Both the position numbers and the translations under genes were made by a program. From positions 1 through 20,732 of IMG/VR virus record IMGVR_UViG_3300030012_001999: a stretch of DNA of 20,732 nt. The stretch is one strand, 5' to 3'. Every line of letters begins with the position of its first letter. Positions within the stretch are counted from its first letter, which is position 1. The notes beneath the pieces were generated by a model, which saw only the letters and a list, made by a program, of their open reading frames with translations, did no database searches and was not told where the DNA came from. The stretch comes from a virus. Shown here piece after piece: positions 17,496-19,383 of this stretch.

Positions 17496-17594
17496 ATGAA
17501 AAGAACTATTAACAGAAAGGTTAAAAATAATGAAACATTATTTAGAAAAAGAAAATGCGATAGATATCGCACAATGGTTATCCAGAGATCCTGA
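17496..17594 (+). CDS. possible 32-residue basic leader peptide
   Basis: ATG 17496 follows TTAGGGGAACAAAT, a better ribosome site than that of the main gene at 17530. The frame encodes a very basic peptide (MKRTINRKVKNNETLFRKRK and 12 more residues) and runs 65 bases into the main gene in another frame. It may be a real overlapping gene, a leader that tunes translation of the main gene, or chance. Confidence 0.3.
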   Translation: MKRTINRKVKNNETLFRKRKCDRYRTMVIQRS

Positions 17595-18165
17595 AACTGG
17601 TGAAGTTACAATCGATGAGAAATGTCCATGGGTTGTAAGAACTAAACCTAATGCAAAACCTCAAATAAGATGCTGGAGTCTTAATCCAGAAAAGCAAAAA
17701 GAATACCCATATGGTAATCTACATAGCTTACAAATGTTTGCATGGGTTGTATTAGGCAAAAACCCATATCCAGGTAAAAGACATATTGAAGTTGTAAAAG
17801 GTCACAAGTTAAATATGAACCCGGATCATTTAAGACTTAAACCTCTGAGAGAAAAATCAAAATCAAAAGAAGTAGATTGGTATTATCCATACGACTTAAT
17901 GCGTGATGATGAAGATAAAGAATTGCAAAAGTATCTACATTGGTTAGCTAAATCACCGGCAATCAGAACGTTGATGCAAGAAATGAAACAATCTCTTGCA
18001 GGTAAAAAGGACAATATGATAGCTAAAATGCTATTTGCAGATATCTTATTAAGTGATGCAAAGCAATATGATAAAGCTAACGAGTTTTATGATATAGTTC
18101 AAGCAATAAGAGACATACAGTCTAAACATGTTGTATCTCTTTTAAGACAACAACTAAAAGGATAA
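17530..18165 (+). CDS. HNH-like protein without the catalytic His, plus C-terminal helical domain
   Basis: A 211-residue protein from promoter P3; ATG 17530 lies nine bases after AGAAAGG. Residues about 60-105 (LHSLQMFAWVVLGKNPYPGK, then HIEVVKGHKLNMNPDHLRL) follow the homing HNH pattern, in which HR.VA..F....P is followed by V-N/D-H-I-D-G...N.p.NL. At the place of the catalytic His there is Val88 (EVVKG), so cleavage is doubtful. Residues about 118-211 are helical (KYLHWLAKSPAIRTLMQEMK; ANEFYDIVQAIRDIQSKHVV) and unlike a nuclease. A DNA-binding regulator or recruiter is plausible. The alignment is weaker than for the protein at 16943, and His85 or His92 might substitute. A terminator follows at 18226. 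Confidence 0.65.
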   Translation: MKHYLEKENAIDIAQWLSRDPETGEVTIDEKCPWVVRTKPNAKPQIRCWSLNPEKQKEYPYGNLHSLQMFAWVVLGKNPYPGKRHIEVVKGHKLNMNPDHLRLKPLREKSKSKEVDWYYPYDLMRDDEDKELQKYLHWLAKSPAIRTLMQEMKQSLAGKKDNMIAKMLFADILLSDAKQYDKANEFYDIVQAIRDIQSKHVVSLLRQQLKG

Positions 18166-18225: not shown

Positions 18226-18260
18226 GACCCTTGTATGACTCCCGTCTGCAAGGGTCTTTT
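18226..18260 (+). terminator. Rho-independent terminator after the second HNH-like gene
   Basis: GACCCTTG (18226-18233) pairs perfectly with CAAGGGTC (18249-18256), followed by TTTT. The loop can extend the stem through GAC/GTC. It separates the P3 transcript from promoter P4. Confidence 0.82.
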
Positions 18261-18285: not shown

Positions 18286-18314
18286 TTGTAATAGAGTTTA
18301 TTTTATGTTATATT
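18286..18314 (+). promoter_or_regulatory. sigma70-type promoter P4
   Basis: TTGTAA (18286-18291), 17-base spacer, TATATT (18309-18314); start near 18321. The -35 is weaker than in P1-P3, but spacing and -10 are ideal. It points into the large non-coding structured region. Confidence 0.68.
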
Positions 18315-18320
18315 ATAAAT

Positions 18321-18842
18321 AATACTAATAAAAAACTATTCAGGCTAATATCTATCTAATACAATTCAACTATAGTCTCCTGGCAAACGGGAAATGCGCC
18401 GATGTAAAGGTGGTGAATCCCATGAGACCTGCGTGTAGCAGTATCTACAATATGGTTGGCTATATGAACACACGAGCCGAAGTGTTCTTAAAAACTCTGG
18501 ACTAATGGTGAAGGATCGAGGCCAAATAGCAATACAACCTGGAGTATTCCGAAAGTCCCACGCCCCGAGCAGGGCGTCTTATGGATGGAGAGATGAGAAC
18601 ATCATTACTCCATATATCTTCACATATACCAATATATTATGAAATACAACTTAGGTCTTAAGTAATCGTTAATGAGAAATAGCTTTAATGAGCAAAGCGA
18701 ATTAAAGTATTTCGATATTAACAGGTCTTGTAAAGACCTTCTAATATTACTACCGTAATCAACTAACAATGAATAGCTATGGATAGATGGGAGGGTTAGC
18801 AAAAAGGACAGAAACTTACCCTCCCTTGAAAACTGTATCACC
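18321..18842 (+). ncRNA. candidate large structured RNA (about 500 nt)
   Basis: No supported gene on either strand, a promoter in front, and a chain of helices: 18434-18449 (5 bp); 18450-18465 (6 bp, TTGG loop); 18466-18487 (GAACAC/GTGTTC); 18494-18500 with 18539-18545 (7 bp); 18560-18577 (ACGCCC/GGGCGT, GC-rich); 18585-18613 (ATGGAG and GATG nested); 18668-18722 (19 bp in three runs, one bulge, one internal loop); 18723-18739 (7 bp); 18746-18759 (5 bp); 18789-18825 (GGGAGGGT/ACCCTCCC). Bases 18349-18358 can pair with 18780-18789 (10 pairs, two wobbles), closing most of the region. Size, phage setting and many helices recall the giant phage RNAs GOLLD and ROOL, but I cannot confirm membership. 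The 3' end is uncertain; no T run follows the last helix. Confidence 0.75.
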
Positions 18843-18914
18843 GGTTTCCATTCGTATTTATAGCTAAAACTTCAAGCATAAATAGATGTAAGTAAAAAAA
18901 CTAAAGGATTAATT

Positions 18915-19034
18915 ATGACGGAACATGAAAAACACAAAACAAGATTTTATAAGATGGCAAATGGGTTAATGTCTATTGCATATATCGCCTTATTTGCATA
19001 TTTTTTAGCAGAACTATCATCATTGATATTCTAA
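18915..19034 (+). CDS. 39-residue membrane peptide
   Basis: ATG 18915 follows AAAGGATTAATT. The sequence begins with a basic, polar head (MTEHEKHKTRFYKMANG) and continues as one hydrophobic helix (LMSIAYIALFAYFLAELSSL), a clear single-span topology with the positive end probably inside. It is the first gene after the large RNA and lies 13 bases before the next structural gene. A small holin, antiholin or membrane effector is possible; there is no signature to decide. Confidence 0.65.
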   Translation: MTEHEKHKTRFYKMANGLMSIAYIALFAYFLAELSSLIF

Positions 19035-19047
19035 CAGGAGTAAGTGC

Positions 19048-19383
19048 ATGGCATCAGGCAAATTAGACATTACAGTAGAACAAGGCGCTACATTTAGCAG
19101 ACTTATTACTATAAAAGACGCATCAAATACAGCAGTAAATATATCATCAGATACATTTGCAGGTCAGATAAGAAAAAGACATCAAAGTGCAACAAAAGAA
19201 GCAGACTTTGACTTTACAATTACAAATGGTTCAGCAGGTCAAGTTACAGCTACAATCACTAATACTAATACAGCTTCAATGGATCCAGGAGACTTCGTAT
19301 ATGATATTGAATGGACAAGTGGATCAACTGTAACAAGATTATTAGAAGGGACAGCTACAGTAACGCCTGAGGTAACCAGATAA
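19048..19383 (+). CDS. small virion/fibre-associated protein
   Basis: A 111-residue beta-rich protein with AACAGGAGTAAGTGC before ATG 19048. The pattern KLDITVEQGATFSRLITIKD, then FAGQIRKRHQS, VTATITNTNTASMDPGDFVY and DIEWTSGSTVTRLLEGTATV, ending TPEVTR, matches a common phage structural domain in which Q.R......GT.....L..G.Y.YDLE......V.RLLEG...V.PEVTR is the usual form; it is found near fibre genes. It probably forms an attachment or adaptor module for the following fibre, translated through a TAATG overlap. Precise role unknown. Confidence 0.75.
   Translation: MASGKLDITVEQGATFSRLITIKDASNTAVNISSDTFAGQIRKRHQSATKEADFDFTITNGSAGQVTATITNTNTASMDPGDFVYDIEWTSGSTVTRLLEGTATVTPEVTR

What the first reader, a model, noticed from the sequence alone, without database searches (positions are those of the whole stretch)
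18321..18842. Large structured non-coding RNA candidate in a phage, perhaps of the GOLLD/ROOL kind
About 500 bases with no supported gene, headed by a 17-spaced promoter, contain at least eleven local helices, including a 19-bp interrupted hairpin (18668-18722) and GC-rich stems in an AT-rich genome. A possible 10-pair helix joins 18349-18358 to 18780-18789, closing the element end to end. Giant ornate RNAs of unknown function are known from phages and prophages (GOLLD, ROOL); this could be a member, a shorter relative or a new class. What is seen is pairing and lack of genes; the class is inference.
Basis: partly seen in the sequence, partly recalled or inferred. Interest (0 to 1): 0.88.

Follow-up and report, generated by a model that had tools for sequence, protein, structure and literature searches.

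The report
New large structured RNA in marine phages
A small marine phage carries a roughly 540-base RNA gene that makes no protein and whose folded shape, not its sequence, is kept by evolution in related phages; it matches no known RNA family, so it looks like a new kind of large phage RNA whose job is still unknown.

Summary
Window 18321-~18862 is a stand-alone non-coding transcription unit: an upstream terminator-like hairpin, a promoter (TTGTAA-17-TATATT) conserved in relatives, no conserved reading frame, many helices. The decisive evidence is comparative. I found three divergent homologues in other marine viral contigs (L006/L004, L007/L017, L019). In the 3' hairpin pair (18668-18739), 12 of 28 base pairs show compensatory double changes and 98% of cells pair. 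A model built from two relatives' 5' domains finds the window's 5' domain, E about 1e-4. A central helix (18454-18463/18526-18539) keeps the same 5+5-bp, 4-nt-bulge form while its bases change. Folding energy alone is not diagnostic, because coding tiles score as low. The end-to-end helix is only weakly supported.

It is not a recognisable GOLLD, ROOL or any other Rfam RNA, not an intron, and not a leader of the next genes. It sits in a cargo slot that in sister phages holds protein genes instead, or the RNA plus a DNA methylase. Best reading: an accessory, trans-acting RNA of a new family that may work like ROOL/GOLLD. The mechanism is inferred, not shown.

The parts
18226..18260 (+). Terminator-like hairpin plus T4 tract ending the upstream operon
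   Evidence: Stem GACCCTTG.../...CAAGGGTC; fold -21.5 kcal/mol, z -6.4; the equivalent hairpin is present in L003, L005, L006, L007
18286..18314 (+). Sigma-70-type promoter of the RNA (TTGTAA, 17, TATATT)
   Evidence: TTGACT/TTGACA at the same place in five relatives, whatever the cargo behind it
18315..18321 (+). ATAAATA, T4-like late-promoter motif overlapping the promoter
   Evidence: 24 of 28 coding-strand copies in six contigs are intergenic
18321..18862 (+). Inferred non-coding RNA transcript (about 540 nt)
   Evidence: Bounded by the promoter and by a 3' hairpin plus ATTCGTATTTA that relatives share; no transcript data
18349..18358 (+). 5' strand of the proposed end-closing helix (partner 18780-18789)
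   Evidence: 10 pairs; 23/300 shuffles as good; weak
18375..18428 (+). 5' domain P1: P1a 18375-18379/18424-18428 and P1b 18389-18392/18418-18421
   Evidence: C-G to A-U in P1a (L006), G-C to A-U in P1b (L019); model R2 from L019 and L006 finds it at E 9e-5 to 6e-4
18434..18449 (+). P3 hairpin TGTAG/CTACA (GTGTTG/CAACAC in L006, L019)
18454..18539 (+). Central helix P4: 18454-18463 with 18526-18530 and 18535-18539, 4-nt bulge AATA
   Evidence: Same 5+5-bp, 4-nt-bulge topology in window and L006, near-same in L019, with different bases; 45, 22 and 9 of 500 shuffles as good
18466..18487 (+). P5 hairpin GAACAC/GTGTTC inside P4
   Evidence: GTCAGC/GCTGAC in L019, ATCAGC/GCTGAT in L006, same position
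18499..18558 (+). Possible pseudoknot GGACT (18499-18503) with AGTCC (18554-18558), crossing P4
   Evidence: Analogous pairing in L019 and L006, but within shuffle range; tentative
18560..18577 (+). GC-rich hairpin P8 ACGCCC/GGGCGT
   Evidence: 12-bp counterparts in L019 and L006
18585..18613 (+). P9 ATGGAG/CTCCAT
   Evidence: ATGGAA/TTCCAT in L019
18668..18722 (+). P10: long hairpin with two tandem G-A internal loops
   Evidence: 11 of 21 pairs with compensatory double changes across four sequences
18723..18739 (+). P11 hairpin AGGTCTT-GTA-AAGACCT, almost invariant
   Evidence: A-U to G-C compensatory change in L007
18780..18789 (+). 3' strand of the proposed end-closing helix
   Evidence: weak
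18789..18825 (+). GC-rich hairpin GGGAGGGT...ACCCTCCC
   Evidence: not seen in relatives
18830..18864 (+). 3' hairpin AAACTG/CGGTTT and conserved ATTCGTATTTA; likely 3' end of the unit
   Evidence: A hairpin followed by a GTATTTA-type motif at the slot's 3' boundary in L003, L006, L007, whatever the cargo; the window and L003 hairpins alone are not significant

Best explanation
The region is a free-standing phage gene for a large (about 540 nt) structured non-coding RNA of a family not in Rfam. It has its own promoter and is carried as exchangeable cargo (a 'moron') between a terminator and the tail-fibre cassette. Shown by comparison: an RNA fold under selection, with a conserved 3' double hairpin, a conserved 5' hairpin domain and a variable centre. 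Inferred: it is transcribed late in infection and acts in trans as a folded particle, by itself or with copies of itself, as ROOL and GOLLD do. It would give the phage an optional advantage, such as host take-over or counter-defence, rather than an essential function.
For: Compensatory changes: 12 of 28 pairs in the 3' domain, 98.1% of cells paired; 0 of 500 shuffles and no slid version come close. Model R2, built without the window, ranks 18372-18452 first in the window at E 9e-5. P4 keeps its topology with changed bases. No conserved ORF. Own promoter conserved. In L019 the RNA lies elsewhere, after an acetyltransferase-like ORF and before a new promoter, so it is an independent unit. Cargo exchange: in L003 and L005 the slot holds two protein ORFs instead; in L007 the RNA is followed by a DNA methyltransferase. 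No Rfam match.
Against: Only four distinct homologues, so most of the central fold rests on three sequences. Folding energy is not exceptional for this genome. End closure and the pseudoknot are within or near shuffle range. There is no transcript, partner or oligomerisation evidence. L007 lacks a recognisable 5' domain.
Confidence: 0.55

Rival explanations
1. It is a divergent member of GOLLD or ROOL.
For: Phage location, about 500 nt, many helices, conserved 3' part with a variable 5' and centre, as described for GOLLD (PMC12286853).
Against: No GOLLD or ROOL match at E up to 10 in the window or any homologue; no tRNA genes nearby; shorter than GOLLD (many members over 800 nt, PMC12286853).
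Confidence: 0.05
2. It is a group I intron or related ribozyme: P4 and the GGACT/AGTCC pairing crossing it mimic the P3/P7 pseudoknot.
For: Strand order P4 5' - P5 - pseudoknot 5' - P4 3' - small hairpin - pseudoknot 3' resembles P3-P7-P8.
Against: No Rfam group I or II match even at E 10; pseudoknot within shuffle range; no room for P4-P6; no interrupted gene, as relatives without the RNA show no joined exon but other cargo.
Confidence: 0.04
3. It is a long cis-acting leader (riboswitch-like) of the downstream small membrane ORF and tail-fibre cassette.
For: In the window and L006 it lies directly upstream of that cassette.
Against: In L007 a methylase ORF lies between; in L019 the RNA is at another locus with a new promoter after it; L003 and L005 have the cassette without the RNA.
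Confidence: 0.07
4. It is a counter-defence or host-factor decoy RNA: an abundant folded RNA that sequesters a host protein or nuclease, with no cage-like assembly.
For: Shares its slot with a DNA methyltransferase (L007) and unknown small ORFs; accessory distribution.
Against: No known partner motif tested; no anti-defence family match for the other cargo ORFs.
Confidence: 0.25
5. It is not a selected RNA: chance pairing in a non-coding spacer or a decayed gene.
For: Coding tiles fold equally well.
Against: 12 compensatory pairs in four sequences, control shuffles 0 of 500; an independent model finds the 5' domain.
Confidence: 0.02

Closest known systems
ROOL RNA (rumen-originating, ornate, large)
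   Same: Phage/prophage RNA of 500-660 nt, own unit, many helices, unknown function
   Different: No Rfam match; different helices; no tRNA island; marine small-genome phages
GOLLD RNA
   Same: Phage RNA, conserved 3' region with variable 5' part, marine members known, raised during lysis (PMC12286853)
   Different: No Rfam match; shorter; no tRNAs; 3' hairpins of different sequence and layout
OLE RNA
   Same: Large ornate RNA that acts as RNA or RNP and forms RNA-only dimers (PMC12286853)
   Different: Bacterial, with dedicated protein partners; no sequence or structure match here
Group I introns
   Same: Superficially similar strand order around a possible pseudoknot
   Different: No core match, no exons

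Membership tests
ROOL | Match to the Rfam covariance model | tested here: not met
   no ROOL match up to E 10 for window, L006, L007, L019
ROOL | Near tRNA islands in phage or prophage | tested here: not met
   ARAGORN: none in window or relatives
ROOL | Octameric RNA nanocage | not testable with these tools
   Needs cryo-EM or light scattering
GOLLD | Match to the Rfam covariance model | tested here: not met
GOLLD | Conserved 3' region, variable 5' region | tested here: met
   3' domain found in all homologues by R1; L007 lacks the 5' domain and the centre varies
GOLLD | Large size (many over 800 nt) | tested here: not met
   About 540 nt between promoter and 3' boundary; L007 about 700 nt
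Group I intron | Catalytic core match (RF00028) | tested here: not met
   E up to 10
Group I intron | Interrupts a gene; intron-less relatives carry the joined exons | tested here: not met
   L003 and L005 lack the RNA and carry protein cargo at the site
Large structured phage ncRNA (general kind) | Covariation-supported structure without a conserved ORF | tested here: met
Large structured phage ncRNA (general kind) | Detected transcript | not testable with these tools
   No metatranscriptome tool

The most novel reading that the evidence does not exclude
A new family of large phage RNA that folds into an RNA-only particle (possibly homo-oligomeric, unrelated in sequence to ROOL and GOLLD) and serves as an accessory effector in a small marine element that has virion genes but no recognised replication genes.
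Probability: 0.3. Interest if true: 0.85.

Novelty: new variant of a known kind. Interest (0 to 1): 0.62.

Why it matters
Only a handful of very large phage RNAs are known, and the function of ROOL and GOLLD is unsolved. A third, unrelated family, whose slot alternates with protein cargo in sister phages, would argue that such RNAs arose repeatedly for a phage-level advantage. It would also give a compact (about 540 nt) test object in a 20-25 kb genome. The exchange with protein ORFs and the link to a methylase make a testable prediction: the RNA is an accessory weapon or shield, not a housekeeping part.

Tried and rejected
- Group I intron (from AAACGGGAAA...AATCCC and GGACT/AGTCC by eye): no model match, no exons; dropped.
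- RNase P or tmRNA resemblance (GAAAGTCC, ACAGAAAC): no Rfam or ARAGORN match, motifs absent in homologues; dropped.
- First idea of a helix CYUG/CGRG and of YCAUG/YRUGG: replaced by the nested P1a/P1b, which fits all three sequences.
- Folding z-score as evidence: rejected, because coding tiles reach about -5.
- DNA patterns in viral contigs: one gave L017 and L019; others gave only protein-coding chance hits (L020, L021, L023, L024).
- Pattern scan of 84,980 genomes: 65 chance hits, none confirmed by model R1 (best 18.7 bits against 42.6 for the weakest true homologue). R1 in 754 proteobacterial genomes: none.
- blastn of window, L006, L007, L019 RNAs against 50,697 phage records: only short chance matches.
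- T4-like phages sharing the neighbouring tail-fibre protein do not carry the RNA in the three loci checked.
- Protein 17530-18162: no relatives found.

Full report
OBSERVATION. The stretch 18321-18842 lies between an ORF ending at 18165 and a small ORF starting near 18916. Upstream are a stable terminator-like hairpin (18226-18260; fold -21.5 kcal/mol, z -6.4) and a sigma-70-like promoter TTGTAA-17-TATATT (18286-18314). ARAGORN and Rfam at gathering thresholds find nothing in the whole window. The minimum-free-energy fold is -136.7 kcal/mol, z -4.6. However, 522-base tiles of coding sequence from the same genome reach z of about -4 to -5 (only five shuffles per tile), so folding energy by itself proves nothing here. 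The case must rest on homologues.

HOMOLOGUES. The 111-aa protein downstream (19048-19380) led to sister phages L003-L007. L006 (and the partial L004) and L007 carry a related RNA in the same place. L003 and L005 do not: the same slot there holds two protein ORFs (195+64 aa; 184+78 aa). A DNA pattern for the conserved 3' hairpins found L017 (same RNA as L007) and L019, in which the RNA sits at another locus, behind an acetyltransferase-like ORF and ahead of a fresh promoter. L019 resembles L006 in its 5' and central parts (81% identity) and the window in its 3' part (74%), so the RNA looks modular. The two small ORFs inside the window element are not conserved.

COVARIATION, 3' DOMAIN. Model R1 was built from window, L019 and L007. 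It finds L006, which was not used to build it, at E 3e-7 in 122 kb. On the four-sequence alignment, 98.1% of cells form standard pairs, 12 of 28 pairs have changes on both sides, and the covariation score is 0.47 against 0.18 in shuffles (0 of 500 as high). Sliding the partners destroys it. Control (a) ignores relatedness and the alignment leans on the structure, but changes such as GC/CG/AU at the first pair and GC/AU/UA in the second helix are not explained by either. The hairpin has two tandem G-A internal loops and is followed by the near-invariant hairpin AGGUCUU-GUA-AAGACCU.

COVARIATION, 5' AND CENTRAL DOMAINS. P1a is GUCUC/GAGAC in window and L019 but GUAUC/GAUAC in L006. P1b is GGGA/UCCC in window and L006 but GAGA/UCUC in L019. 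A second model, R2, built from L019 and L006 only, ranks 18372-18452 as the best place in the window (28 bits, E 9e-5 with filters off; the next is 11.5 bits). The central helix P4 was predicted independently in each sequence as two helices with the same 4-nt bulge: GGUUG+GCUAU / AUAGC-AAUA-CAACC (window), AGGUAG+GUGUA / UACAC-AAUA-CUACCU (L006), and AGGUUAU+GAUAUC / GAUAUC-ACAU-AUAAUCCU with one extra bulge (L019). Shuffled sequences do as well in 45, 22 and 9 of 500 cases. Taken together, and with the same topology, this is persuasive. P5 and P9 also covary. A pseudoknot crossing P4 (18499-18503/18554-18558) is possible but within shuffle range. The end-closing helix is weak (23/300 in the window; better in L019, 2/300).

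WHAT IT IS NOT. No Rfam family matches the window or a homologue meaningfully, even at E up to 10 in short stretches. Neither GOLLD, ROOL nor group I/II introns appear. There are no exons, since relatives without the RNA carry different cargo. It is not a leader of the tail-fibre cassette, since the cassette occurs without it and it occurs without the cassette.

CONTEXT AND LIKELY WORKING. The slot has a conserved front (terminator, promoter) in the sister phages, and a hairpin plus GTATTTA-type motif at its rear in most of them; the content changes. That is the anatomy of a moron. Its contents include a DNA methyltransferase behind the RNA in L007. I infer an optional, trans-acting function in the phage-host contest. 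The large size, layered helices and modular evolution suggest a folded particle, as shown for ROOL and GOLLD (8-mer and 14-mer RNA-only nanocages, PMC12286853); an abundant stable transcript is known for the Lactobacillus salivarius RNA (PMC5643018), which PMC12286853 counts as ROOL. Whether this RNA assembles is unknown.

THE PHAGE. TerL is closest to pelagiphages HTVC026P/HTVC111P (48%). The neighbouring 111-aa protein is closest to tail-fibre proteins of T4-like marine phages (HTVC008M 46%). Contig G003 (24,761 bp) begins and ends inside the same portal gene, which suggests a complete circular map. In the ORFs I listed from it and its relatives I recognised structural, HNH and methylase genes, but no replication gene. 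ATAAATA, the T4 late-promoter core, occurs 28 times on the coding strand of six contigs, 24 of them intergenic. One copy overlaps the RNA promoter. This fits late expression, perhaps helped by a T4-like co-infecting phage; that is speculation.

VERDICT. Real, new to Rfam, and supported by covariation: a new family within the known kind of large structured phage RNAs. Confidence that it is a genuine structured RNA gene is about 0.9; that it works like ROOL/GOLLD, about 0.3.

Noticed in passing
16204, 18162, 18315, 18878 (+) and contigs of L003-L007, L014: T4-like late-promoter core ATAAATA on the coding strand is almost only intergenic (24 of 28 in six contigs), unexpected in a small phage with lambda-like tail genes.
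   Followed up: partly
window whole; G003 (24761 bp), G004 (23738 bp): These 20-25 kb genomes carry packaging, head and tail genes but no recognised replication, integrase or lysis gene; together with T4-like late motifs and a T4-like tail-fibre neighbour this hints at a helper-dependent element (satellite with its own capsid).
   Followed up: partly
19048-19380: 111-aa protein homologous to tail-fibre (assembly) proteins of T4-like marine phages (HTVC008M 46%), beside a pelagiphage-like terminase: mosaic tail-fibre cassette.
   Followed up: partly
18855-18884: Inverted repeat TATTTAT...ATAAATA; a GTATTTA...TAAATAC arrangement recurs in L003, L006, L007 and L014 at the slot's 3' boundary; role unknown.
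   Followed up: no
17530-18162: 211-aa ORF with an HNH-like NPDHLRL stretch; no family match and no relative in IMG/VR; its position is empty in L003.
   Followed up: partly
L003 2986-3767, L005 2901-3633: Two-gene protein cargo (195+64 and 184+78 aa) that replaces the RNA in sister phages; the second ORFs are alike (AEHRVNGxWxKWIGxxEL), no family match.
   Followed up: partly
L105 5839-7170 (G004): ParB-N plus N6/N4 methylase fusion (444 aa) just upstream of the terminase small subunit in G004 and G001, absent from the window.
   Followed up: no
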